From NCBI GenBank assembly GCA_023362775.1, contig JALMGJ010000004.1:57465298-57529297 (forward strand): 64,000 bases of DNA. Direction: 5' to 3'. The notes beneath the pieces are model-generated. The model saw only the letters and a program-made list of their open reading frames with translations, was not told the origin of the DNA and did not search any database. Of this stretch, positions 786-56,640 are shown piece by piece; position 1 is the first letter of the stretch, and every line of letters begins with the position of its first letter. This DNA is from Charina bottae (lineage: Eukaryota; Chordata; Lepidosauria; Squamata; Charinaidae). The position numbers and the translations under genes are program-made.

Positions 786-2276
786 GCTAGCTGAGAAGGT
801 AGCCAAACAAGAGTCCTAAAGACTAACTTCAAGAGAGACGACGGTATCCCAGCTGAACTGTTTAAAATCTTGCAAGATGATGCTGTCAAGGTGATGCATG
901 CCATATGCCAGCAAATTTGGAAAACACAAGAATGGCCATCAGATTGGAAAAAAACAACTTATATCCCCATACCAAAAAAGGGAAACACTAAAGAATGTTC
1001 AAACTATCGAACAGTGGCACTTATTTCACATGCCAGTAAGGTAATGCTCAAGATCTTGCAAGGTAGACTCCAGCAATTCATGGAGCGAGAATTGCCAGAT
1101 GTACAAGCTGGGTTTAGAAAAGGCAGAGGAACTAGAGACCAAATTGCCAATATCCGCTGGATAATGGAGAAAGCCAGGGAGTTTCAGAAAAACATATATT
1201 TTTGTTTTATTTACTATTCTAAAGCCTTTGACTGTGTGGATCATAACAAATTGTGGCAAGTTCTTGGTGGTATGGGGATACCAAGTCATCTTGTCTGCCT
1301 CCTGAGGAATCTGTATAACAACCAAGTAGCAATGGTAAGAACAGACCACGGAACAACGGACTGGTTTAAGATTGGGCAAGGAGTACGGCATGGTTGTATA
1401 CTCTCACCCTACCTATTCAACTTGTACGCAGAACACATCATGCGACATGCTGGGCTTGAGGAATCCAAGGCTGGAGTTAAAATCGCTGGAAGAAACATTA
1501 ACAATCTCAGATATGCATATAATACCCCTTTGATGGCTGAAAGTGAGGAGGAGCTGAGGAAGGTGAAAGAAGCAAGTGCAAAAGCTGGGTTGCAGTTAAA
1601 CCTAAAAAACCCCAAGATTATGGCAACCAGCTTGATTAATAACTGGCAAATAGATGGAGAAAAAGTGGAGGCAGTTGACAGACTTCGTATTTCTAGGCAC
1701 AAAGATTACTGCAGACGCTGACTGCAGCCAGGAAATCAGAAGATGTCTACTTCTTGGGAGGAGAGCAATGACAAATCTTGATAAAATAGTTAAGAGCAGA
1801 GACATCACACTGTCAACAAAGGTCTGCATAGTTAAAGCAATGGTATTCCCCGTAGTAACCTATGGCTGCGAGAGCTGGACCATAAGGAAGGCTGAGCAAA
1901 GGAAGATAGATGGTTTTGAACTGTGGTGTTGGAGGAAAATTCTGAGAGTACCTTGGACTGCAAGAAGATCAAACCAGTCCATACTCCAGGAAATAAAGCC
2001 AGACTGCTCACTTGAGGGAATGATATTAAAGGCAAAACTGAAGTACTTTGGCCACATAATGAGAAGACAAGATATCCTGGAGAAGAAGCTGATGCTGGGG
2101 AAAGTGGAAGGCAAAAGGAAGAGGGGCCAACCAAGGGCAAGATGGATGGATGATATTCTGGAGGTTACGGACTCGACCGTGGGGGAGCTGGGGATGGCGA
2201 CGGCCGACAGGAAGCTCTGGCGTGGGCTGGTCCATGAAGTCACAAAGAGTCAGAAGTGACTGAACGATTAAACAAC
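786..2276 (+). mobile_element. Bov-B/RTE LINE, 5'-truncated
   Basis: This is a truncated RTE-type LINE in plus orientation. It ends in the ACTGAACGATTAAACAACAAC tail class typical of Bov-B. The 8-mer AACCTGCT occurs just before it (778-785) and just after it (2277-2284) and is my best candidate for a target-site duplication. The left boundary rests on that duplication, because I can only follow the reverse transcriptase reading from about 820. Its last 170 bases match the short fragment at 16793-16977 much better than the Bov-B at 55.4 kb, so the window holds two RTE lineages. The copy is dead (see the coding remnant). Confidence 0.85.
834..2262 (+). pseudogene. Bov-B reverse transcriptase remnant, frameshifted
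   Basis: The reading opens with the RTE fingers motif DGIPAELFK near 836 and continues through IPIPKKGN, CSNYRTVALIS, QAGFRKGRGTRDQIANIRW and QGVRHGCILSPYLFNLYAE. A one-base insertion near 1680 shifts the frame, after which the C-terminal part (FVFLGTKITADADC, YGCESWTIRKAE, WCWRKILRVPWTARRSNQSI, KYFGHIMRRQD) runs to the stop near 2257. The palm is destroyed: the first catalytic Asp (usually FIDY) is Tyr at 1212-1214, and the YADD box reads YAYN at 1512-1523. All three metal-binding Asp residues are therefore gone, so the enzyme cannot work. The endonuclease domain is absent through 5' truncation. Confidence 0.9.
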
Positions 2277-3984: not shown

Positions 3985-5760
3985 CGCTGGAAAGAGCATT
4001 ACTACAATCTCCTTAATCGTCACTCTACTGTGGCTGATGAAGTCTTCTTGCAAATCCCGCAAAAACAAATAAGAAATGAGCTTGCAGTACCTCCTAGTTT
4101 GGAGGAAGTCAGTAAAGCCACTAAACAAATGAAAAATAACAAAGCTAGTGGACCTGATGGGATTCCTGCTGAAGTCTTTAAAGAAGGCGGGCCTGAACTT
4201 ACACAACAACTTCATAAGCTCATCGAAAAAATCTGGATGAGGGAGGAGATTCCAGCAGACTTTAGGGATGCCATAATTATCACTCTCCTTAAAAAGGGTG
4301 CTAGAACAGACTGTGGAAACTATCGAGGCATCTCCCTTCTAGCCACAGCAGGCAAAATCCTCGCAAGGATCCTCGCAAACCGTCTCCTATCTGTATCAGA
4401 AGACATCCTCCCTGAAACGCAAAATGGCTTCCGCCCTTCCAGGGGAACGGTGGATATGATCATCGCTATGATTCTGCACCTTGTTGAAGAGAAACTTCCT
4501 ACTGGTGTAGAAATCATATATCGAACAGATGGAAAGCTTTTTAATCTTAGTAGGCTGAAAGCAAAAAATAAGGTAATTACAACTTCTGTTATAGAACTTC
4601 AATATGCTGATGATAACGTAGTCTGTGCACACTCCGAGGAAGATCTTCAAACTATCCTAAACATCTTTGCAGAAGCATATGAAAAGCTCGGCCTCTCGAT
4701 TAACATTAAAAAAAACAAAGTGCTTTACCAGCAAGTTTGAACCAATCCCTCTGCAGCGCCATCAATCCAGCTTAAAGGTGTGTCACTAGAAAATGTCGAC
4801 CACTTTTCTTATCTCGGCAGCCATCTATCTACAAAAGCCAACATCGATGCTGAAATTCAGCATCGCCTGAGCTCTGCGAGTGTAGCTTTCTCCTGAATGA
4901 AGTGTAGAGTGTTTGAGGATTGGGACATTTGCAGGGAGACCAAAATGCTTGTTTACAAAGCCATTGTACTACCAACCCTTCTGTACGCCTGTGAAACATG
5001 GACCCTCTACAAACGCCACCTCCAACTTCTTGAAAGATTCCATTAACGCTGCCTCCGAAAAATTCTGCAAATTACTTGGGAAGATAGGCGGACTAATGTT
5101 AGCGTATTAGAATAAGTGAAAAGCACCAGCATTGAAACAATGATCATCCAACATCAACTTCGCTGGACCGGTCATGTTGTTCGAATGCCTGACCATCGTC
5201 TTCCAAAGCAGCTACTTTACTCCCAACTTAAGAATGGAAAACGGAATATTGGTGGACAGCAAAAGAGATTCAAAGATACTCTCAAAGCTAATTTAAAAAA
5301 ATGTAATATCAGCATTGAGAACTGGGAAGCCCTAACTCATGAGCGTTTCAATTGGAGGTTATCCTTTATTAATGGCGCTATGGACTTTGAAGAAGCACGA
5401 GTACAGGGCGAAAGGGAGAAAAGAGCTAAAAGGAAGGCACGTCAGGCAAACCCTCATCATGACCGTCTCCCACCCGGAAACCTATGCTCTCACTGTGGGA
5501 GGTTGTGCGGATCCAGAATTGGCCTTTATAGCCACTTACGGATCCACTGTTAAAATTTTACCTTTGGAAGACAATCTTACTCGGCTACGAGTGATCGCCA
5601 ATGGTATACATTTCTTGTTTATGTTGTGTATTCCATTTGTGTGTGTTTGCTGTTGTTTTACTTCCTCAGACTCATATCACCATTTTAAGAATAGCTACTT
5701 AGCCTAAGGAGCATTTTGGTGCCCTGCTGTAAGGGCACTGCATTTTGGAGGAATTAGAGG
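3985..5760 (+). mobile_element. Non-LTR retrotransposon with C-terminal zinc finger
   Basis: A second, unrelated LINE in plus orientation. The translation starts inside the endonuclease-to-RT linker (EHYYNLLNRHSTVADE) and runs to a C2H2 finger followed by a stop. The copy is 5'-truncated and carries an internal deletion. The 3' end is uncertain; I place it where the sequence stops resembling a LINE 3' region (GATAAATACTAATAAATG near 5780). A C-terminal CX2CX12HX3H finger is known from Ingi-group elements and also occurs in other animal LINE groups, so I leave the clade open between Ingi/Vingi-like and RTE-like. Confidence 0.75.
4030..5553 (+). pseudogene. Reverse transcriptase with C2H2 finger, four stops
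   Basis: One frame runs all the way from 4030 to 5553. RT motifs in order are KASGPDGIPAEVFK, GNYRGISLLATAGKI and ILPETQNGFRPSRGT, then an in-frame jump near 4500-4590 to YADD (4603-4614, intact), LGLSINIKKNK, YLGSHLSTKANID, LPTLLYACETWT, LRWTGHVVRMPD and finally CSHCGRLCGSRIGLYSHLRIH (finger at about 5485-5550). The jump removes the middle of the RT, including the first catalytic Asp. Four stops interrupt the frame at 4738, 4894, 5044 and 5113. Their contexts fit two CGA-to-TGA and two CAA-to-TAA changes, all C-to-T. No frameshift is needed. The copy is inactive, but its coding text is well preserved. Confidence 0.85.
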
Positions 5761-6410: not shown

Positions 6411-6660
6411 GGAGCCAGTGTGGTCTAGTGGTTAAGGCAACAGGCTAGAAACCAGGAGACTGAGAGTTCTAGTCCCACCTTAGGCATGAAAGCCAGCTGG
6501 GTGACCTTGGGCCAGTCCCTCTTTCTCAGCCCAACTCACCTCACAGGGTTGTTGTTGTGGGGAAAAGAGGAGGAGGAGGAAGGAGTATTAGGTATGTTCG
6601 CAGCCTTGAGTTATTTATAAAAATAATAAAGGCAGGATAGAAAATAAATAAATAAAAAAT
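6411..6660 (+). mobile_element. Sauria-type SINE, long-tail form
   Basis: A tRNA-derived SINE. A promoter A-box-like TGGTCTAGTGG is at 6421-6431 and a B-box-like GTTCTAGTCCC at about 6466-6476. The body (GGCATGAAAGCCAGCTGG, then GACCTTGGGCCAGTC) is shared with the copies at 20.9 and 53.6 kb. The 3' part reads CACCTCACAGGGTTGTTG, then GAGTTATTTATAAAAATAATAAAGG, ending in AAATA repeats. This tail differs from that of the copies at 19.7 and 21.3 kb. Confidence 0.9.
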
Positions 6661-7255: not shown

Positions 7256-8090
7256 CTAGGGGGCTAGCCAACCCCAAGACTGGCTATTCCCCTCCCCTCC
7301 CCAAGCCTGATGACATAGCCAGGTCTTCAAGTTTTTGCTAAAGTCCAGGAGAGAGGGGGCCGATCTTATTTCAGGGGGAAGAATATTCCAAGGGGTGGGG
7401 GCTACTGCAGAGAAGGCATGCCTCCTAGACCCTGTCAGGTGGAACTCTCTTGCAGACGGGGTTCGTAGCGTGCCCGCTCTGCAGGACTGGGTGGGATGGG
7501 TTGATTGAATGGGGATGAGCCAGTCATTCAGGTAACCTGGACCCATGCCATGTAGGGCTTTAAAGGTAATAACCAACACCTTGAATTGAATCCAGAAGCA
7601 AACTGGGACCCAATGCAGCTCACGGAGCAAAGGTGTTATGTGTGCCGATCTTGAGGCACCTAAAATGGCCTGTGCGGCCGCATTTTGAACCAGCTGAAGC
7701 TTCCGGATGCTCCTCAAGGGTAGCCCCATGTAGAGCGCATTACAATAGTCTATCTGGGAGATGACCAGGGCATGAGTGACTGTTCGAAGGGCCCCTCGCT
7801 CTAGGAAAGGGCGTAATTGGCGCACAACACAAAGTTGTGCAAAGGCCCTTCTGGCCACGACTGCCACCTGCTCTTCGAGCAGGAGTCGTGAGTCCAAAAG
7901 GACCCCCAGATTACAAACTGGGTCTGTCTGGGGTAGTGCAACCCCATCCAGAACTAAAGATGATAAATTCCTAGATACCGAGGGGCCATTAATCCACAGC
8001 CACTCCGTCTTACCAGGGTTCAGCTGAAGCCTGTTGTTCCCCATCCAGACCCCTACAGCCCCCAGGCACTTGGACAGGGTAGTCAGGGTA
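7256..8090 (-). pseudogene. L2 reverse transcriptase C-terminal region
   Basis: The open frame covers the RT thumb and downstream part of L2: LQLNPGKTEWLW, LGVLLDSRLLLEEQVAVVAR, THALVISQIDYCNALYMGLP, KLQLVQNAAAQAI, LRELHWVPVCFWIQFKVLVI, FKALHGMGPGYL and a terminal LKTWLCHQAW. The YADD palm lies 5' of the truncation and is missing. The frame is open for about 275 codons with no stop, so this copy is fairly young although it is a fragment. The first residues of the open frame (before about 8090) belong to flanking DNA. Confidence 0.85.
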
Positions 8091-8097
8091 GTATGAT

Positions 8098-8615
8098 GGA
8101 TGTACTTATGGCAAAAGCATGAGAATAAAGAGAACACTTATGATTCAACAGGGAATAAAACTATGATGTCTTGTTTGTTTAACAAGATGCAAGGTGAGAA
8201 GTCAAAGAACAGAAAGCAACATATGGACATGGTGGGAAAAAAGGACAGTTTGCATGGAGAGCTTGGAAACCTACAGTGGATCGTGTTGGTATAAGCCAGT
8301 TTTCTTTTAGTATCTCATGTATCTAATTTCTTTGGCTTACTATTTCTCACTGCTTTTCTGAGCTCTGAATAATGATGGAATAGCATGATGGATATGCCTG
8401 CTTTGTATTAAGCAAAATTGTCTCAAGGCAAATGGTTATTAGTGGTTTACTGAACGAACTATTGCTTGCCCATTCTGCAGAAATACAGCAGGAAAGGAGA
8501 TTCTTTGCCTTTCAAAAATGAGCTGCAGAAATCGAGATGCAGGATATGGTAATCAGTGACTTGCCTCTGATGTAATCACTGCATGGGTGTGATTATCCCC
8601 TGTCCAGAGCTAATG
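8098..8615. other. No feature recognised
   Basis: Flanking DNA between the L2 truncation point and a hAT MITE. I see no supported gene. Confidence 0.4.
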
Positions 8616-23600: not shown

Positions 23601-23965
23601 CAGAGCTTTCCAAACTGTGTGTCGCGACAAAAAAGTGTGTCACCACACACAGCGTGGTGTGTCGCCACACCACCCGGAAGCGGCGGCGCGCACGTGCATG
23701 GTGGCAGCGGCCGCTGCTGCCGCCGCCACCATGCACGCCCGCGCCGCCGCATGGCCCCCGTGCTGCTGCCGTGCGCGCCGCCGCACGCCCCCCCGCGCCG
23801 CCGCACGCCCCCCGCGCCGCTGGCGCATGGTCTCCTGTGTCGCCGCCGCGCACGCGCCACCACACACTCTCCTGTGTCCCCCGCCGCGCACGCACGCCCC
23901 CGCGCCGCCGCTGTGCCACCGCCACCACTGGCGTGTCGCCAGCAGCGGCACTTTGGAAAGCCCTG
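23601..23965. mobile_element. GC-rich hAT MITE
   Basis: A 365-bp non-autonomous hAT element. The left end CAGAGCTTTCCAAA and right end TTTGGAAAGCCCTG are terminal inverted repeats, and the perfect 8-bp duplication ACCTAGCC lies at 23593-23600 and 23966-23973. The interior is extremely GC- and CpG-rich (GCCGCC, CGCGCC and CACGC runs) in AT-rich surroundings, and has a short TGTGTCGC inverted pattern next to the left end. Long open frames cross it on both strands in several phases, but they encode low-complexity Ala/Arg/Pro/His text and I do not regard them as genes. Confidence 0.95.
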
Positions 23966-24007
23966 ACCTAGCCACAGGTGCAAGGTCACACAGCCACCCT
24001 AGAAACA

Positions 24008-24112
24008 TATTTAAGGATTCCCTTACAAACTTTGCTCAGACTGAAGAAGCTTCTTGGATAAGGAGCGAAACGTTTCCACTGAGAAAATAGAAATCCAGTT
24101 GACATGATTCAA
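24008..24112. repeat. Single arm of the 47.7-kb palindrome family
   Basis: About 105 bp from TTTAAGGATTCCCTTAC to ATTCAAGCTACAGA match one arm of the palindrome at 47720-47943 with only a few differences. It shows that the arm exists as a dispersed repeat unit. The core CTGAAGAAGC...GGAGCGAAAC keeps its internal hairpin through a G-U pair. Confidence 0.85.
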
Positions 24113-25820
24113 GCTACAGAGGGCCTTGAAAGCAAATTTGATGCCTAGAAAAGTGTTTCCAAAGAACCTCAGAAAAAGCATGTATGCCAGTGGGAGGTCA
24201 GACAATGCCACAGCAACTCCCCCTTTAGAAGGAGATGGGCAACCACAAGCCCACAGGGAAGCTGGCAGGAGCTAAAGGCAAGTGTCACAGAATCCCTTCT
24301 CAGCTGCCCGCAGTACTGACAAATGGGACCGGCCAGAGAAGATACCAATCAAGTGACTATAAGACGTTTGTGGGGATGGTAGAGGAGAGTATTAGGCATG
24401 AGGATTTAGAAACTGTACTAGATAAATAGAGGACTGAGAAATGGAAAATTGAATATAAGATATAAGAAATATAGCTACAGAGTAGAATTAATAATCTTAG
24501 AAATACAATGAAACTATAAAAATAAGTAAGACAATACATATTGAAGGTCAGCATAAGGAAATAAGTAAAAGCAAAAATGTGTAGAAAAGGGGGCATAGGT
24601 TAGGAATAACAATAGAATAGATTTCAAGGCTAAAAAGTATAAGGCATAGGAAGAGAAAATAAGAATATAAAACAATATAGGAGTACAGTGCAGAAAAAAT
24701 AATAAAAGACATTAGAAAACAAAAGACAGAAATATTATAATAGATGAGAAAGTACATCACTGCTTGATGTAAAACAATTTATTTTCCTTTTGTAATAAAA
24801 AATCTTCTCAAGGAGTTTGCCTGGGTCTGTACCATCTCCAGATCTATGACAGTCAGCTAGAGTTCTTTGGAATATGTTTAATTCAAAGTTTATTGCCATG
24901 ACTCATAAAGATCAATTCATGTAATAATTTCAGATATTGAACTCTGCATTGGACGTAGTCTCCTCCCTATCTGGTGCTATTGCTCACTGCCTTCCTAGGA
25001 AAGGTATTGACTTTACTTGCTTCAATCAATGAAAGGCTAACCAGTAGGCACATTGGCAGATCAAGATAGACAGGCAGATCTTGAAAAAAAATTGAAGGAA
25101 ATCAACAAAGCCTTTTTGGCAACTTCGAAGTCATATTGTGAGAATTCCTACTCTGTAACTGCAAGAGTATATTTGCCTCTGAATGTGCAGAACATATTGA
25201 CAACAGGGTGGAGTAAATGATTGCTTCTGCATTTGGATGATTTGTTGTGGGATCCAAAGTGTTCTCTTCGATTGATCCAAAGTGTGTTTGAATGCACAAG
25301 TATAGCAGAAGCGCACAATGAGAAGTAGACATATGTGCTATGCATGTTGATAAGTATTGTAACCATCCTAATGCTGGTATCTGTTGCTGCAGGATGGATC
25401 CAATGATCATTGCTGAAAAAAACTTTTTCTTTACTTGCTGGTATCTGCTACAAATTGAACTTGGAATAATTATTCTACAACATGCTTCCTGAGGAAGCTT
25501 CTCCATAGAATGCACAGTATTTATTAGTAGTCCCATGAATATATGGCTGTGATAATGGTAGAAGAACTAATAATCTGCCATTGGTAAGGAAACATAATCA
25601 GGATGACCAGAATCCCTTGCTTTCAGCTTCTTCATTCTAGTATTTCTGAGGTTGTGGATGAAATTCCATTTTGCATGACTAAAATACTGACTCTGGCACT
25701 GTAGTTAGCTCATAATTCCAGCCTGAGCAGAAGAACAAAAAGTCAAGAAATACAGAGACATAAAAAGGAGTCCCTGCTGCAACTGTTTTTTATCCTAAGG
25801 ATGTTACGGTATGGTATCCT
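24113..25820. other. No gene seen; A/G-skewed block
   Basis: Positions about 24420-24750 are strongly purine-rich on the plus strand, with few C or T. I cannot say whether this is a decayed repeat. The minus-strand frame at 25102-25536 (144 codons) has no recognisable domain. Confidence 0.4.
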
Positions 25821-34453: not shown

Positions 34454-34458
34454 ACAGC

Positions 34459-34815
34459 TGTCAGGGTTCATGTCTATGAATCCTGCCATTAGGATCTATA
34501 ATAGCTTAGTGCTTGTATAGTAGTTGGGAGGGGGAATGACAGTTGAGTGTTATGTCTGCTGCTGGAAGCTAGAGACAGCTAGGCCAAGGTCACGCACCTG
34601 CAAAGGAGAGGAGATGGGACCGTTTGCTCCATGAGATCATCGCTGGTGAATTGGCGCGCAAAGGGAAGGGTTAAGAGAGCATAGTTTGGCGGGAATCAGT
34701 ATTCAAGTCTTTAGGAGTGCTTCAATGAACATGTATCCTAAATAAAGCTTTATCTGCATTTCAATGAATTGCATGGAGAAGTGTTTATTGGGACATTGTT
34801 GTTGAGATCATCACA
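34459..34815 (+). repeat. 5' LTR of chromovirus
   Basis: It starts TGTCAGGGTTCATG and ends GATCATCACA. A TATA-like TTAAGAG lies at 34671-34677 and a polyadenylation signal AATAAA at 34741-34746. If transcription starts at 34701 (see the primer site), U3 is 34459-34700 and R begins 30 bp after the TATA-like box. Confidence 0.97.
34671..34712 (+). promoter_or_regulatory. Predicted LTR core promoter and RNA start
   Basis: TTAAGAG at 34671 is a TATA variant 30 bp upstream of 34701. ATTCAAGTCTTT at 34701-34712 is the exact complement of the primer site, which in self-priming elements marks the first bases of the transcript. The start site is inferred from these two signals agreeing. Confidence 0.6.
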
Positions 34816-34816
34816 G

Positions 34817-34828
34817 AAAGACTTGAAT
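34817..34828 (+). promoter_or_regulatory. Self-primer binding site
   Basis: AAAGACTTGAAT starts one base after the 5' LTR and is perfectly complementary over 12 bases to 34701-34712 in R, with mismatches on both sides. In Tf1 and sushi-type chromoviruses the RNA 5' end folds back and primes reverse transcription at such a site, instead of a tRNA. I did not compare it with all tRNA 3' ends. Confidence 0.7.
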
Positions 34829-34919
34829 CTACAATCCAGTCGGTTTATCCTGAGGTTACAAGTGGTAACTCCATTTAGTGCCTCCTGAGTGAGAATCGGC
34901 TTGTCCAAGCAACTTCAGC

Positions 34920-37889
34920 ATGGAAGAATCTATGGAATGCTTCCAGACGGAGGAAGGGGAGCAACCAGGCCCCTCTTCAGGTTGGGAAGCGAAGAGTGCG
35001 GCTGCTGAACCCGAAGCAGCTAAGAAAAAAGCCTCTAAGAAGGTGTCTCGACGAAGTGGCGTAGAGACTACCGAACTAGCCATGGCACGCACCCCTCGAG
35101 TGGGAGCGGAATGGTCCGTGGGAATTGGAGGCGGCATCCGGGCTGGGAAGGGAAAACGCACTGCTAAACCCAGAGTGACCCAGTCCCAGAGGATGGCTTC
35201 ACTGGAAGCGAAGACGGCACGTATTGATGGTGAAATGGAGACTATTAGTCACCAACTACAAACCCTTATTCAATCCGTGCAACAACTGGCTTTGATTTCA
35301 AAGCAGGAAGGTATTCCAGGGGCGGATTTACCACCTAAATTGATGACCACGGCAGCAGAGAGCGGCACGTCTAGTGGAGAGGAGGAGGAGGAATCCTCTG
35401 GATCCGAAATGGAGGTGCCTCAACCGGCCGTGAGTAAATTACAAAGGGGCCAACCTAGGGTGTTCGCGTTGAACAAACTGAAAACAAGATTTGATGGGGA
35501 CCCAGCGAAATTGGCTTGCTTTATGACCCATGTCAGGGGTTTTATGGAGGAGTTTGAAGAGTCTTTCTTAACGGAAGAAGCCAAAGTAAGGTACGTCTCA
35601 AGTTTCTTAGAGGGAGAGGCTGCTTTATGGCTGGTGGCGTTGCATGACTCTAACTCTCCAGATTTATGGACTTTTAATGGCTTTATGCTAGCTTTACGAC
35701 GCCGGTTTGAAGATACCCTCTCTAAAATGTCAGCTAAAGTGCAGCTGCAGCAGCTACGCCAGGGAAACCGATCTGTTGCCGAATACGCAATGGAGTTTAA
35801 AAAACTCATAGGCATGGTCCCATCTTGTCCTGAGACGTTTCAGGTGGAATACTTCCAGATGGGGCTGAAACCCGAGATTTTAGAGATGGCAGCAGGACGG
35901 GGTGACCCTGACACCCTAGAAGAATGGATTCAATTAGCCGGAAAGGTTGAGAGCACCCAATTAAGACTGAGATCGTACAGGAAGCTACATAGCTCGGGGA
36001 AAAGCCCTTTGGGACAGCCCCCGGCGAAGAAGCTAGCTAGAGCCACTGCTTGGGAAAAGGAAGCTTTTGCAGTGCGACATGCTCTAGCTACATGGCGACA
36101 CCTGCTGGAGGGTTCGCCTCATCCCTTTGAAGTCTTCACTGACCATAAGAACTTGGAAGCACTTAAAACGCCTCGGAAATTAAATCCTAAACAAATCCGT
36201 TGGGCTGAATTTTTCAGTAGGTTCAATTTCACATTAAAGTATTTGCCAGCTGGAAAAAACTTTTTAGCAGATGCTTTATCTAGACTGCCACAGCATGACA
36301 CTCAACCAGAACTGATGATATCCACAGTAATGTCTCCCCAACAATTGGGATTATCCAACCAGGAGGAACCTGGTTCTGACAACGATGCAGCACCCATACC
36401 TGTACAATTGCAAGGGAAGGTGGCTATCACTAGAAGCAAGGCCAAACCACCGAAACCTTTATGTGAACCCTCCCTAGAGAAAGAACTTAAAACCGCTATA
36501 GAGGCTGACGATTGGTGGAAAGAGCACAAGCAAACATTAACTGAGACGAATGGGGTGTGGTGGAATGGAGACAGATTATATGTTCCAGAGACTGTGAGAA
36601 AGGCTATTTTACAACGTTGTCATGATAGCAAAATTGCCGGACATTTCGGATTTGTAAAAACTTTACATTTGGTCAGAAGGCAATTTTGGTGGCCAACTTT
36701 GAGGAAAGATGTTAAACAATATGTTTTGTCATGTCATGTTTGTGCATCCATGAAAAAAGCACCCGGGAAACCGGTGGGACTATTGCAAACAGTGGCTGAG
36801 CCAACAAGCCCATGGAAACAAATTTCAATGGATTTCATTGTAGACTTACCAGAGAGTAAAGGCAAGACCGTCATATGGGTAGTAACTGACTTATTTTCTA
36901 AACAAGCTCATTTCATCCCTTGTAAAGGATTGCCATCTGCTGGTCAACTGGCAAAGTTATTCATCTTGCACATTTACCGAGCGCACGGCGCCCCCTTGCG
37001 GATTATCAGCGATCGCGGAAGTCAGTTTACCGCCAAATTTTGGAAATCATTTCTAAAATTGATTGGAACTGAACAGGGTCTTACCTCTGGGCATCATCCG
37101 GAGGGTAACGGAGCTTGTGAACGGCTTAACTCCGTGTTGGAACAGTATTTACGGTGTTACATTAGTCATCAGCAAGATAATTGGGTGGAGTTGTTACCCT
37201 TTGCTGAGGTAGCGTATAATAATGCTGTTCATCAGAGCACTGGATTTTCACCATTTAAAGTGGCTACTGGCCAGGATTTTGTACCTATTCCTGAGCTACC
37301 TGACCCTGCCATGCTTCAACAAACTGATCCTGTACTAGCAGATGAATGGATTACAAAAATACGATCAAATTGGCCGATAATGTTGAATATATTACAAGAA
37401 GCAAAAAATTCATACAAAAATTTTGCTGATCGTAAACGGGCTCCAGAATGGCCTTTAGTGGTGGGAGAAAAGGTCTACCTGTCTACAAAACATTTGAAAT
37501 CAACTCAGCCATGCAAGAAACTGGGGCCTAAATTTATTGGGCCATTTCCCATTGTGAAAGTGATCAACCCAGTAGCCGCTCAATTGGACTTGCCAAAGAA
37601 CCTTCGTAGAGTACATCCTGTCTTCCACATCAGCTTATTGAAACCAGTTAAACCAGCTGATCAGTGGCATCCAGATCCAGTGGCGCCGCCACCTATCATG
37701 GTGGGAGATAACGAACATTTTGAAATTGTGAACATTTTGGACTCCAGATTGCACCGGGGGAAATTACAGTATTTGGTGCAATGGAAACATTTGCCTGTGG
37801 GGTTTGAGGAGTGGGTTGATAAGATTCATGTTTCAGCGCCAAGGTTATTGAAGAAATTCCATGATCAATTCCCTTCTAAACCTGGTTAA
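34920..37889 (+). CDS. Gag-RNase H(end)-integrase-chromodomain fusion ORF, no PR/RT
   Basis: 989 codons, open throughout. Residues about 1-180 are a charged N-terminus. Residues about 185-360 are a Gag capsid-like domain (RFDGDPAKLACFMTHVRGFM, FLEGEAALWLVAL, LRQGNRSVAEYAMEFKKLIG). At about residues 365-377 Gag passes straight into the end of RNase H (WEKEAFAVRHALATWRHLLEG, FTDHKNLEAL, ADALSRLP), which lacks its first catalytic Asp. Protease, zinc knuckle and the whole RT are missing. Integrase follows: the zinc-binding region (RCHDSKIAGHFG, CHVCASMKK; about 560-610) and an intact D,D35E core (MDFIVDLPE near 637, SDRGSQF near 698, CERLN 36 residues on). A GPF module and a C-terminal chromodomain (about 930-985, EIVNILDSRLHRGKLQYLVQW) close the protein. 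I chose the first ATG after the leader. Upstream neighbours are the primer site and LTR. It probably acts only with RT from a complete relative. Confidence 0.9.
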   Translation: MEESMECFQTEEGEQPGPSSGWEAKSAAAEPEAAKKKASKKVSRRSGVETTELAMARTPRVGAEWSVGIGGGIRAGKGKRTAKPRVTQSQRMASLEAKTARIDGEMETISHQLQTLIQSVQQLALISKQEGIPGADLPPKLMTTAAESGTSSGEEEEESSGSEMEVPQPAVSKLQRGQPRVFALNKLKTRFDGDPAKLACFMTHVRGFMEEFEESFLTEEAKVRYVSSFLEGEAALWLVALHDSNSPDLWTFNGFMLALRRRFEDTLSKMSAKVQLQQLRQGNRSVAEYAMEFKKLIGMVPSCPETFQVEYFQMGLKPEILEMAAGRGDPDTLEEWIQLAGKVESTQLRLRSYRKLHSSGKSPLGQPPAKKLARATAWEKEAFAVRHALATWRHLLEGSPHPFEVFTDHKNLEALKTPRKLNPKQIRWAEFFSRFNFTLKYLPAGKNFLADALSRLPQHDTQPELMISTVMSPQQLGLSNQEEPGSDNDAAPIPVQLQGKVAITRSKAKPPKPLCEPSLEKELKTAIEADDWWKEHKQTLTETNGVWWNGDRLYVPETVRKAILQRCHDSKIAGHFGFVKTLHLVRRQFWWPTLRKDVKQYVLSCHVCASMKKAPGKPVGLLQTVAEPTSPWKQISMDFIVDLPESKGKTVIWVVTDLFSKQAHFIPCKGLPSAGQLAKLFILHIYRAHGAPLRIISDRGSQFTAKFWKSFLKLIGTEQGLTSGHHPEGNGACERLNSVLEQYLRCYISHQQDNWVELLPFAEVAYNNAVHQSTGFSPFKVATGQDFVPIPELPDPAMLQQTDPVLADEWITKIRSNWPIMLNILQEAKNSYKNFADRKRAPEWPLVVGEKVYLSTKHLKSTQPCKKLGPKFIGPFPIVKVINPVAAQLDLPKNLRRVHPVFHISLLKPVKPADQWHPDPVAPPPIMVGDNEHFEIVNILDSRLHRGKLQYLVQWKHLPVGFEEWVDKIHVSAPRLLKKFHDQFPSKPG

Positions 37890-38048
37890 CTGCACAATTA
37901 TTCTTATTTCTGTTTTTCAGATCTCAGTGCCTCCCATTGTCTTGCAGCCTGAAGAATTCTGGAATTTGTCCATGTACCTTTATGTATACTTGTATTTCTT
38001 AACCTTTCTTGTTCTTGGCATACTATTCTTTCTTTTGGAGGGTCGGCA
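37890..38048 (+). promoter_or_regulatory. 3' leader with polypurine tract
   Basis: The region after the stop ends in GGAGGGTCGGCA (38037-38048) directly before the TG of the 3' LTR, the usual position of the plus-strand primer. It is purine-rich but not pure, as in other chromoviruses. Confidence 0.6.
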
Positions 38049-38405
38049 TGTCAGGGTTCATGTCTATGAATCCTGCCATTAGGATCTATAATAGCTTAGT
38101 GCTTGTATAGTAGTTGGGAGGGGGAATGACAGTTGAGTGTTATGTCTGCTGCTGGAAGCTAGAGACAGCTAGGCCAAGGTCACGCACCTGCAAAGGAGAG
38201 GAGATGGGACCGTTTGCTCCATGAGATCATCGCTGGTGAATTGGCGCGCAAAGGGAAGGGTTAAGAGAGCATAGTTTGGCGGGAATCAGTATTCAAGTCT
38301 TTAGGAGTGCTTCAATGAACATGTATCCTAAATAAAGCTTTATCTGCATTTCAATGAATTGCATGGAGAAGTGTTTATTGGGACATTGTTGTTGAGATCA
38401 TCACA
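38049..38405 (+). repeat. 3' LTR of chromovirus
   Basis: 357 bp, identical to the 5' LTR. The polyadenylation signal AATAAA is at 38331-38336. It is followed by the target duplication ACAGC. Confidence 0.97.
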
Positions 38406-38798
38406 ACAGCTTTGTACTATTATGCCAGGTTTTTTTGGGGGGGTGGGGCGCAAAGGTTTGATTAGGCAAACATGATTGCTACTGACTGCTCATTGTGCTG
38501 CAAACATTAATGGGAACAAAATACCCAAATTCAATCCCAAAATGTATTACCAGCAACATTTTTTAAGCTCCTTACTGGCAAGTCTCTCTACTTTTAGCTA
38601 CTTTTTGAAGCCAAGGTAAAACCTCTCTAAGCTTCTTCTTTTCTACAAATAAACAACAATGGTTGGTTTCTTAGGAGTATCTCATTTTAGTCCATGTTTA
38701 CATGTGAATAAAAAAAAGCAAGAGTTAAAAGGGAACTTATTTCTCAACTGGTGAGAATGTATTTGTTAAGATGACTGGAACACAGTAGAACAGTAGAA

Positions 38799-47672: not shown

Positions 47673-47687
47673 CTCCTGAAACTTTGT

Positions 47688-47942
47688 CTATGAAGGTTCT
47701 CAGTCATCCAGGTGGAATTGTCTGTAGCTTGAATCATGTCAACTGGATTTCTATTTTCTCAGTGGAAACGTTTCGCTCCTTATCCAAGGAGCTTCTTCAG
47801 TCTGAGCAAAGTTGGTAAGGGAATCCTAAATATTTAGGATTCCCTTACCAACTTTGCTCAGACTGAAGAAGCTCCTTGGATAAGGAGCGAAACGTTTCCA
47901 CTGAGAAAATAGAAATCCAGTTGACATGATTCAAGCTACAGA
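47688..47942. mobile_element. Palindromic insertion with 15-bp TSD
   Basis: A 255-bp insertion flanked by the perfect 15-mer CTCCTGAAACTTTGT at 47673-47687 and 47943-47957. The first 33 bp (47688-47720) are single. The rest is a perfect, spacer-less palindrome centred between 47831 and 47832. By chance the flanking bases at 47720 and 47943 also pair, giving 112-base arms (47720-47831 and 47832-47943). The arm is the unit found singly at 24008-24112. Target duplications of this length suggest target-primed reverse transcription. Paired inverted termini are known for Penelope-like elements, which is my tentative assignment. There is no coding content. Confidence 0.85.
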
Positions 47943-47957
47943 CTCCTGAAACTTTGT

Positions 47958-51547: not shown

Positions 51548-52565
51548 TTTTATTTATTTATTAAATTTATACACTGCCCATCTCACTATAAAAGTGACTC
51601 TGAGTGGCTTACAAATAAAAGTTATAAAACTATTATAAAATACAAAAAATAGAAGAAGATAGAAGAGGGAAACTAAAAGGCGGAGAGAGTATCTTTAAGC
51701 CACCAACCACCCCCAGGGCTGCCTATCTCTCTTGGGTCCCCAAGCTAGTTGGCAGAGCCAGGTCTTGAGGCTCTTCCTGAAGGCCAGAAGAGTGGGGGCC
51801 AACCTCACCTCAGGGGGCAGGATGCTCCACAGGGCAGGGGCAACGGCATAAAAGGCTTTTCTCCTTGACCCCGCCTGTTGGAATTCTTTAGCTGATGGGG
51901 TTCGTAACATGCCCTTCCTGCTGGACTGGGTGAGAAGGGTCAATGTGATTGGGATGAGACAGTTCCTCAGGTAACCTGGGCCCATGCCATGAAGGGCTTT
52001 AAAGGTCATAACCAACACCTTGAATTGGACCTGGAAGCACACTGGCACCCAATGCATCTTGCACAGCAGAGGTGTTACATGCACAGCCCTAGAGGCATCC
52101 ATAACTGCCTGTGCTGCTGCATTCTGTACCAGCTGCAGCTTCCAGATACTTTTCAAGGGTAGCCCCATGTAGAGTGCATTGCAGTAGTCCATATGGGAGA
52201 TGACCAGGGCATGAGTGACTGAGAGAAGGGCTTCCTGATCCAGGAAAGGGTGCAACTGGCACATAACACGAAGTTGAGCAAAGGCCCTCCTAGCCACGAC
52301 TGCCACCTGCTCCTTGAGCAGGAGTCGTGAGTCCAGGAGGACCCCCAAATTGCGCACTGGGTCTGTCTGGGGCAGCGCAACCCCATCAAGGACTAATGAT
52401 GGTAGATTCCCATATGCAGAGGAGCCCCACAACCACAGCCACTCCATCTTACCAGGATTCAGCTGAAGCCTGTGGTTCCCCATCCAGACCCTCACAGCCT
52501 CCAGGTACCATGAAAGAACATCCACAGCATCACTTAGTTCACCTGGGATGGAGACCCAGGCTTTA
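51548..52565 (-). mobile_element. L2-clade LINE, 5'-truncated
   Basis: A minus-strand L2 with its tail at the left (TTTTATTTATTTATTAAATT, then ACACTGCCCATCTCAC). Coding sequence extends to about 52560. It is parallel in extent to the copy at 7 kb. Confidence 0.9.
51700..52560 (-). pseudogene. L2 reverse transcriptase C-terminal region
   Basis: An open frame without stops from SDAVDVLSWYLEAVRVWMGN through LQLNPGKMEWLW, LVLDGVALPQTDPVRNLGVL, THALVISHMDYCNALYMGLP, MHWVPVCFQVQFKVLVMTFK and LKTWLCQLAWG. It begins just downstream of the YADD box, so the palm is missing and no activity is possible. The first codons of the open frame upstream of about 52560 are host DNA. Confidence 0.85.
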
Positions 52566-53570
52566 GCTTTGAGTGCTTGACAACGGACTTTAGTTATTTT
52601 TTTACTCCAGATGCAGAGCAATAATTAAAACTTTGGAGCATTTTTTCAGCCTTCTCATCACCAATAAAGCAATTTCACAGTTTCCTGAATTTTGAAGAAA
52701 AGCTATACTTGGAAGTGTTAATTAACTAAATTACTATTAAGAGGCATTGAAAAACAGGATATGAAATGCAATTTCTACTCATTGGTTTGGACCAGAAATA
52801 GAAGAACAATTATTATATGAAATGTGTAGACTACAACACTTATTGTCAATATTTAAAGGACAGTTACAAAATCTTATACTAATACTGGACAATGGAATAA
52901 AATAAAAGTGTAAATCTCTATTTAGTTATTATTTCAGAACAGAGTATAACAATATCTATGAGCAATATTTCAATATTTGATATAATCACATGGATGGAAA
53001 AATTAATCAGGCTTCAGGTTTTCCTACATGCTGCTGATCTACTTTTCAATAGACCAAAAGCAATTACTCTGACAGAATATAATGGTGGGGAGAAGTGCTC
53101 AAATGAATATTATTTCCCTGAGTCTTCAAAAGATCTAGTAGAGTTTCCTCAAATCCTTCCCATTCTACTATTGAAGAAGACTAAATTGAAGAAGACTAAG
53201 GAAGATTCCTACTGAGGTCCATTTGAAAGTAAGTGAACCATCCTATCTAATTGTGACTGGGAACTGTGATAAATAGATAAAACTAATCCCTAACTCCTTA
53301 AGCAATCATAATTATTCTCATTCTTTTTTCTCCATGTCATTTTGATTATATGTACTTATAATTTTTTTTTCACAAGACTTTACCCCCTACATCTAATGAG
53401 GTGGATATCATCTGTGAAAATTCATCTGCAGTATAATAAAATTGTTAATCTCTAAGGGGCAGTTTTTCCTTTGTCACAAGCTAACATGGCCACATAGGTG
53501 AAAGGGGAGGAAAAGAGGGGAGGTGAGAACAAGGACACATTTTGGTTTGGTCTAAGTTTATGTGAGAATG
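52566..53570. other. No gene seen
   Basis: AT-rich spacer with no recognised repeat. The frame at 52958-53215 has no known domain. Confidence 0.4.
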
Positions 53571-55430: not shown

Positions 55431-56084
55431 TTGTTGTTGTTGTTGTTGTTCAGTCATTTAGTCGTGTCCGACTCTTCGTGACCTCATGGACCATAGCACG
55501 CCAGGCCTTCCTGTCCTCCGCTGTCACCCGGAGTTTACTCAAATTCATGTTCATTACATCGGTGATGCTATCTAACCATCTCAACCTCTGCCGTCCCCTT
55601 CTCCTTTTGCCTTCAGTCTTTCCCAGCATCAGGGTCTTTTCCAGTGTGTCCTCTCTTCGCATTAGGTGGCCAAAGTATTTGAGCTTCAGCTTCAGCATCT
55701 GTCCTTCCAATGAGCAGTCAGGGTTGATTTCCTTTAGGATTGACTGGTTTGACCTCCTTGCAGTCCAAGGGACTCTCAAGAGTCTTCTCCAGCACCACAG
55801 TTCGAAAGCATCAATTCTTCGGCGCTCAGCCTTCCTTATGATCCAGCTCTCACAGCCATACATTACTACTGGAAAAACCATAGCTTTAACTATACGGACC
55901 TTTGTCGGCAAGGTGATGTCTCTGCTTTTTAATATGCTGTCTAGGTTTGCCATAGCTTTCCTCCCAAGGAGCAAGCGTCTTTTAATTTCATGGCTGCAGT
56001 CACCGTCTGCGGTGATCTTGGAGCCCAAGAAAATAAAATCTGTCACTGCTTCCATTTCTTCCCCTTCTATTTGTATTACCGGGA
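55431..56084 (-). mobile_element. Bov-B LINE 3' part, inserted in copy X
   Basis: A minus-strand Bov-B whose (GTT)n terminus lies at 55431-55450 (complement of the AAC tail), followed by GTCATTTAGTCGTGTCCGAC. It is 5'-truncated near 56084, where L2 text resumes. It is much better preserved than the Bov-B at 14.7 kb and belongs to a different lineage from the copy at 786-2276. I could not define a target duplication. Confidence 0.88.
55450..56075 (-). pseudogene. Bov-B reverse transcriptase C-terminal region
   Basis: The open frame reads IEGEEMEAVTDFIFLGSKIT, SHEIKRRLLLGRKAMANLDS, YGCESWIIRKAERRRIDAFE, LWCWRRLLRVPWTARRSNQS, KYFGHLMRREDTLEKTLMLG and RAMVHEVTKSRTRLND. It is the full RTE C-terminal region, open to its natural end, but the RT palm and endonuclease are missing through truncation. 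The open frame extends further upstream only because it reads by chance into the L2 copy X. Confidence 0.88.
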
Positions 56085-56640
56085 AACATCTACATATTGA
56101 TGCTGCACTATACTGGCCAATGATATTACCCAATGACTTCATGTAAATGTTAATCAGTAGATGAGAAAATGCCAAGTCCTGTAGCATCCCACAGCAGAGG
56201 TCCCTTAATCTCTCCCTTTTTACCATTGCTAAGAGGATCAGCTACTTAGAAAGGAGGAGAACCAGTGTAACCCAGTGTCCCACCTGCGAACTCTGACAGC
56301 CAATTCAGAAGAATATCATGGTTGATGGTATCAAAAGTTGCTGAGAGATCCAGCAAGACTAGGAGATCATACCACTTTATTCAGGGCCTGGACAAAGTCA
56401 TCCAATTTAGCAATCCATGTAGTATCTGTTCCATACCCAGATATGAATACTAATTGATAGATATCTGATCAATCTGTTTCATCCAGGATTCTCTGTATCT
56501 ATATGTTAACCACCTTTTCAACAAGATATCTTAATAGCCAGGTTGAGCAATGGCTTCTTGAAGAAAGGATATACCACCACCATTTTAAAGGTGGGAGATA
56601 AATGACCCTTTCTCAAGTATGTATTCACCATCATCGATCG
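56085..56640 (-). mobile_element. Old L2 (copy X), RT piece
   Basis: Read on the minus strand: a decayed RT fingers and palm segment with LLDLSATFDTINHDIL near 56330, and further on LLINIYMKSLGNIIGQYSA, the L2 segment just before YADD. It aligns with 58140-58480 of the full L2 at its upstream end (complement ACCACCACC...CCCTTTCTCAAG near 56575-56620). It is interrupted here by copy Y and resumes at 61437. Confidence 0.75.

What the first reader, a model, noticed from the sequence alone, without database searches (positions are those of the whole stretch)
34459..38405. Young chromovirus whose single ORF fuses gag to integrase, with protease and RT missing
The LTRs are identical over 357 bp and the 5-bp duplication ACAGC is perfect, so insertion was recent. 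The 989-codon ORF is fully open but passes from Gag (about residue 365) straight into the last third of RNase H, then integrase and a chromodomain. An in-frame deletion that leaves capsid, an intact D,D35E integrase and the chromodomain, but no RT, fits a non-autonomous derivative that supplies its own Gag-integrase fusion and borrows RT. If it is multi-copy, it would be a distinct, successful parasite lineage rather than a one-off deletion.
Basis: partly seen in the sequence, partly recalled or inferred. Interest (0 to 1): 0.82.

Follow-up and report, generated by a model that had tools for sequence, protein, structure and literature searches.

The report
Young reptile retrotransposon, one-off internal deletion
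A recently inserted copy of a common mobile element, probably in a reptile genome, lost its middle third in a single deletion that joined its shell gene to its integrase gene; no second locus with this junction was found, although the family has hundreds of copies, so it looks like an ordinary defective copy and not a new parasite lineage.

Summary
In detail: at 34459-38405 lies an LTR retrotransposon with LTRs identical over 357 bp, a perfect ACAGC duplication and one open 989-codon frame of Gag capsid, a piece of RNase H, integrase and chromodomain. The host genome settles most of the rest. The family has 309 5' and 414 3' LTR-internal junctions. Undeleted sisters, about 5.9 kb, carry zinc knuckle, protease, RT and whole RNase H; close ones match this copy at about 99.5-100% over the pieces compared. 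This copy lacks 1,937 bp, with a 6-bp microhomology at the junction. The frame is open because sisters read pol in the -1 frame and the deletion, not a multiple of three, cancels that shift. Other copies carry different lesions. Best reading: a one-off deletion copy of a young Tf1/sushi-type chromovirus. Not closed: junction copies with more than 3 mismatches, and other individuals; a wider search did not complete. Interest is low.

The parts
34454..34458 (.). 5-bp target site duplication, left copy (ACAGC)
34459..34815 (+). 5' LTR, 357 bp, TG...CA
   Evidence: identical to the 3' LTR, 0 of 357 differ; 40 of 1,956 candidate places in the genome were scored, all 40 at 100%
34701..34712 (+). likely start of the RNA (R), complementary to the primer site: self-primer
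   Evidence: 12-nt exact complement of 34817-34828; role inferred from Tf1/sushi elements; RNA start not mapped
34817..34828 (+). primer binding site of self-priming type
34920..37889 (+). single ORF of 989 codons: Gag capsid joined to a piece of RNase H, integrase, SH3-like domain, chromodomain
36051..36056 (+). deletion junction: 6-bp microhomology TGGGAA; 1,937 bp present in sisters are absent here
   Evidence: junction found once in the genome at up to 3 mismatches
38049..38405 (+). 3' LTR, 357 bp
38406..38410 (.). 5-bp target site duplication, right copy (ACAGC)

Best explanation
This is one recent copy of a young, many-copy vertebrate chromovirus family of the Tf1/sushi type that probably primes its own reverse transcription. 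During reverse transcription of a full-length RNA, the growing strand most likely jumped from the RNase H coding region to the zinc-knuckle region of gag, guided by the shared TGGGAA, and skipped 1,937 bases (end of gag, protease, RT, front of RNase H). The shortened cDNA was then inserted by the proteins of full-length sisters. By the chance of its length the deletion cancelled the -1 gag/pol frameshift, so Gag and integrase now lie in one open frame. SHOWN: the anatomy, the sisters, the exact deletion and microhomology, a single place for the junction in this assembly at up to 3 mismatches. INFERRED: that the jump came before integration (and not as a deletion in the chromosome afterwards), and that sisters supplied the enzymes. 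The copy is predicted to be defective on its own. That it is a one-off deletion copy, by either route, I hold at about 0.93; the confidence below is for the route through reverse transcription.
For: LTRs 0 of 357 different, TSD perfect. 18 of 47 paired sisters have exactly 5,527 bp LTR-to-LTR spacing against 3,590 here, a difference of 1,937. Window versus close sister pieces: 0, 1, 4 and 5 mismatches in 1,241 bp on the gag side (4 copies covered in full); 0 to 7 mismatches over 958-1,992 bp on the integrase side (13 pieces of 10 copies, one piece with 2 gap positions). The sister piece over the deleted segment holds RVT_1 and the front of RNase H by Pfam, and a DSG protease motif read by eye; the sister gag piece holds zf-CCHC, just above its cut-off. 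Microhomology of 6 or more at random junctions in one sister piece: fraction 0.0018 of 174,991 pairs. Junction 60-mer at up to 3 mismatches: 1 place, the window. Sisters with different lesions: 3 of 47 pairs, and two more rearranged copies with perfect TSDs, one with an inverted LTR segment that starts at the primer site.
Against: Nothing excludes a microhomology-mediated deletion of the chromosome after insertion. The junction search allows only 3 mismatches in 60, so a copy of the junction in the diverged sister group (87-95% identical over the internal pieces compared) could be missed; the shorter, more tolerant junction search did not complete (first sent, last). The only control of the junction pattern is the tool's backwards read (0 places); the positive control with the undeleted gag side did not complete. 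One sister, at C110:76.8M, matches less well on the gag side (98.2% over 335 bp). One assembly only.
Confidence: 0.68

Rival explanations
1. Microhomology-mediated deletion in the chromosome after a full-length copy had inserted; still a one-off deletion copy.
For: 6-bp microhomology fits DNA end joining as well as RT template switching.
Against: The family shows other lesions that look like reverse-transcription errors inside perfect TSDs: an inverted LTR segment beginning at the self-primer site and an LTR-to-gag deletion. This is indirect.
Confidence: 0.25
2. An amplified non-autonomous lineage that makes a Gag-integrase fusion and borrows RT from full-length partners.
For: Open 989-codon frame with intact integrase motifs; LTRs, primer site and 3' end are kept; many partners with the same LTR exist.
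Against: Junction found at 1 place only; among 47 paired sisters none has the 3,590-bp spacing (the 3' listing ended at contig C122, so the window, on C212, is not among the 47, and neither are copies on later contigs). An open frame is expected in so young a copy without any selection.
Confidence: 0.03
3. Assembly collapse: the true locus is full-length.
For: Young, nearly identical repeats are where assemblers fail (general knowledge).
Against: Collapse merges long identical stretches; the two sides share 6 bp only. Contigs reach 254 Mb and 44 of 47 paired sisters stand in the assembly at near full length. No reads were available.
Confidence: 0.04

Closest known systems
Tf1/sushi group of chromoviruses (vertebrate V-clade, e.g. 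Sushi-ichi)
   Same: Chromodomain integrase, D,D35E, 5-bp TSD, self-priming PBS; nearest named proteins are squamate, frog and fish chromovirus polyproteins. PMC6317226 (passages seen) says that self-primers have been described in the Tf1/Sushi group from yeast and vertebrates and lists Sushi-ichi in the V-clade.
   Different: This copy lacks the zinc knuckle, protease, RT and the front of RNase H; its sisters do not.
Non-autonomous LTR elements mobilised in trans (e.g. ETn by MusD)
   Same: Keeps LTRs and priming site and probably depended on full-length sisters; PMC12283350 (passages seen) describes ETn using MusD enzymes.
   Different: One locus only here; ETn is an amplified lineage (recalled).
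RT-less or RT-reduced chromovirus frames elsewhere (P0048; P0028, P0030 and P0036 of Dendrobates tinctorius)
   Same: Gag, integrase parts and chromodomain with RT missing (P0048) or reduced to a scrap (P0028) (P0030 and P0036 read by eye and by the listing only). They are 4 among the 120 listed of 246 hits, by reading the precomputed domains.
   Different: They keep protease; different breakpoints; P0048 keeps a whole RNase H. The Dendrobates ones may be gene-model artefacts; not checked at DNA level.

Membership tests
Tf1/sushi chromovirus | integrase with C-terminal chromodomain | tested here: met
   PF00385 residues 934-982, E 6.9e-07; PF24626 SH3_Tf2-1
Tf1/sushi chromovirus | self-priming: PBS complementary to the LTR's own RNA start | tested here: met
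   12 nt exact, 34817-34828 against 34701-34712; the RNA start itself is not mapped
Tf1/sushi chromovirus | 5-bp target site duplication | tested here: met
   ACAGC here; 5-bp duplications also at C201:167.7M and C201:132.0M, at the C1:233.9M solo LTR and at the C202 and C110:76.8M copies
Tf1/sushi chromovirus | RT phylogeny within the clade | not tested
   no RT in this copy; no tree built from sisters
Amplified non-autonomous lineage | several loci with one shared junction and different TSDs | tested here: not met
   1 place at up to 3 mismatches in 60; more tolerant search unanswered
Amplified non-autonomous lineage | cis signals for mobilisation kept | tested here: inconclusive
   LTRs and PBS kept; packaging signal unknown
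Amplified non-autonomous lineage | Gag-integrase fusion protein made and active | not testable with these tools
   no expression or protein data

The most novel reading that the evidence does not exclude
The fused Gag-integrase protein is made and enters particles of the full-length sisters, where, lacking zinc knuckle and protease, it acts as a trans-dominant inhibitor or as an alternative integrase carrier; a single fresh insertion of this kind could be the seed of host control of a young family.
Probability: 0.03. Interest if true: 0.5.

Novelty: new member of a known kind. Interest (0 to 1): 0.12.

Why it matters
As it stands it matters little: it documents that a young vertebrate chromovirus family leaves fresh copies with one-off deletions and rearrangements, and it warns that a long open fused frame in a young element needs a genome-wide junction search before it is called a lineage.

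Tried and rejected
Amplified lineage: rejected for this assembly at up to 3 mismatches. Plain in-frame deletion: rejected, 1,937 is not a multiple of 3. Assembly collapse: judged unlikely from the 6-bp overlap; not testable without reads. Splicing origin: the repeat allows seven cut positions; read by eye from the letters, at none of them does the lost segment begin with GT, so no GT-AG intron. Rfam on the window at gathering score: one tRNA hit. A megablast of the window's first 1,000 bases against phages found nothing and was of no use. Paper searches were (listings only, apart from passages of two papers): the phrase 'gag-integrase fusion' together with 'retrotransposon' has 0 papers in that library; no other claim about print is made. 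Paper PMC1563812 is not held. Rfam on the sister piece L046 and Pfam on 116 residues of its 566-bp foreign piece: 0 families. In one search my cut position in the window was one base off (36055); it was set right.

Full report
OBSERVATION. The element lies at 34459-38405: two 357-bp LTRs without a difference, TG...CA ends, 5-bp duplication ACAGC on both sides. One ORF, 34920-37889, 989 codons. Pfam finds capsid (Ty3_capsid 191-346, Retrotrans_gag 225-318), RNase H only from profile position 46 of 105 (374-435), H2C2 zinc binding (555-613), integrase core (630-726), SH3_Tf2-1 (849-910) and chromodomain (934-982). D698 and E734 have 35 residues between them. Just after the 5' LTR, AAAGACTTGAAT (34817-34828) is the exact complement of LTR positions 243-254: the self-priming arrangement reported for the Tf1/sushi group (PMC6317226, passages seen).

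RELATIVES. The protein search scored 7,993 candidates and lists 120 of 246 hits; the best is 57% identical over 62% of the query (no organism given), and among named hits Crotalus adamanteus (51-58%), Anolis, Xenopus and Leptobrachium follow. The host is therefore probably a squamate; the genome carries no name here. Window = G000:C212:57465298-57529297; the genome has 1,804,297,929 bases in 278 contigs.

SISTERS. The LTR has 1,956 candidate places, of which 40 were scored, all 40 at 100%. The 5' LTR-to-internal junction (50 bases, up to 3 mismatches) occurs at 309 places, the internal-to-3' LTR junction at 414; the backwards-read controls give 0. Only 100 places of each were listed, all with 0 mismatches. 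Spacing from LTR start to LTR start: 18 of 47 exactly 5,527 bp, 44 of 47 between 5,492 and 5,656, and three at 2,049, 3,858 and 4,866. This copy: 3,590. None of the 47 has that spacing; the window is outside the 47, because its contig lies beyond the end of the 3' listing. Where the 3' LTR of the 18 unpaired 5' ends would be expected, 8 of 18 regions hold LTR sequence (5 a whole LTR), 4 hold only internal sequence and 6 show no match: these copies are diverged, shifted or rearranged and were not worked out. The 53 unpaired 3' ends were not looked at further, except the one at C110:76.8M.

THE DELETION. In five of six sister middles the distance between two marker strings is 1,968, in the sixth 1,966; counted on the window's letters it is 31. 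The missing segment is 1,937 bp; sister gag side ...TGCTTGGGAA|GAGGAAAAAG, sister RNase H side ...GGTGTGGGAA|AAGGAAGCTT, window ...GCTTGGGAAAAGGAAGCTT: shared TGGGAA, window 36051-36056. A random pair of cut points in one sister piece shares 6 or more bases in a fraction 0.0018 of 174,991 trials, so chance rarely gives such a junction. In a sister, the lost stretch shows the zinc knuckle (zf-CCHC, 21.2 bits against a cut-off of 20.8), RT (RVT_1, E 3.5e-35) and the front of RNase H, and a DSG protease motif read by eye (Pfam reported no protease at 1e-3).

FRAME. In six of six sister middles gag ends ...PAENERCLA* and pol overlaps it in the -1 frame; pol is open over the stretch read in five and interrupted in one. 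1,937 leaves remainder 2 on division by 3, and this shift is the one that brings pol into the gag frame. That, and youth, are enough to explain the open 989 codons.

ONE LOCUS. The 60-base junction at up to 3 mismatches: 1 place, the window. Window against close sister pieces: gag side 0, 1, 4 and 5 mismatches in 1,241 bp for the four copies covered in full, and 98.2% over 335 bp for the rearranged copy at C110:76.8M; integrase side 0 to 7 mismatches over 958 to 1,992 bp (13 pieces of 10 copies, one piece with 2 gap positions). Diverged sisters are 87-95% identical over their internal pieces (C1:183.15M and C13:34.64M), and there 3 mismatches in 60 would be too strict; a 29-base junction search and the positive control were sent many times and never answered (first, last). 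I call uniqueness shown for close relatives and likely, not shown, for diverged ones.

OTHER LESIONS. C1:183.15M and C13:34.64M (diverged) and C110:13.13M (close) carry three other internal deletions with different ends; the last has 566 bp of foreign sequence in the gap, part of which also occurs in this window at 47685-47943 and 23961-24120. C202:8694471-8696979 has LTR, primer site, then LTR 254 to 1 inverted, then the integrase part and 3' LTR, with TSD ATAAG; C110:76798561-76803338 joins LTR position 156 to gag, with TSD GCAAT. A solo LTR lies at C1:233913400 with TSD CTGAC. Lesions of one-off look thus occur repeatedly in this family, and this window holds one more; whether any of those other junctions is shared was not searched.

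VERDICT. Ordinary defective copy; interest 0.12.

Noticed in passing
G000:C202:8694471-8696979 (L036, L002): Sister copy in which the 5' LTR and primer site run straight into an inverted LTR segment (positions 254 to 1) that begins exactly at the self-primer complement, inside a perfect ATAAG duplication. It looks like plus-strand synthesis copying past the self-primer into U3, or a jump at the 12-nt PBS homology: a possible fossil trace of self-priming in a vertebrate.
   Followed up: partly
G000:C110:13127800-13131450 (L046, L047): Sister copy in which 566 bp of foreign sequence replace the stretch from gag to just before RNase H. Part of it also lies in the window (47685-47943, 23961-24120). 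Pfam and Rfam: no match; Penelope-like is only my guess.
   Followed up: partly
L009-L014, gag/pol overlap: Sisters read pol in the -1 frame; the overlap holds a GGAAAAC heptamer in the phase of a -1 slip site and an ATG of the pol frame just before the gag stop. Which one is used is untested; the slip-site reading is by eye.
   Followed up: no
G000:C110:12384563 and C110:12430626: Two copies 46 kb apart share the same TSD CAACC and the same spacing: probably a recent segmental duplication of the host.
   Followed up: no
G000:C110:25652424: A young copy flanked on both sides by sequence 72-73% identical to the family's integrase region (L017, L028): nested in an older relative.
   Followed up: no
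window 870-2259, 4030-4740, 7256-8137, 51695-52621, 55450-56226: ORFs that look like pieces of LINE reverse transcriptases or their C-terminal parts (by eye, recalled; no family search run).
   Followed up: no
window 6414-6486: tRNA-like match in Rfam, 35.1 bits; could be a tRNA-derived SINE.
   Followed up: no
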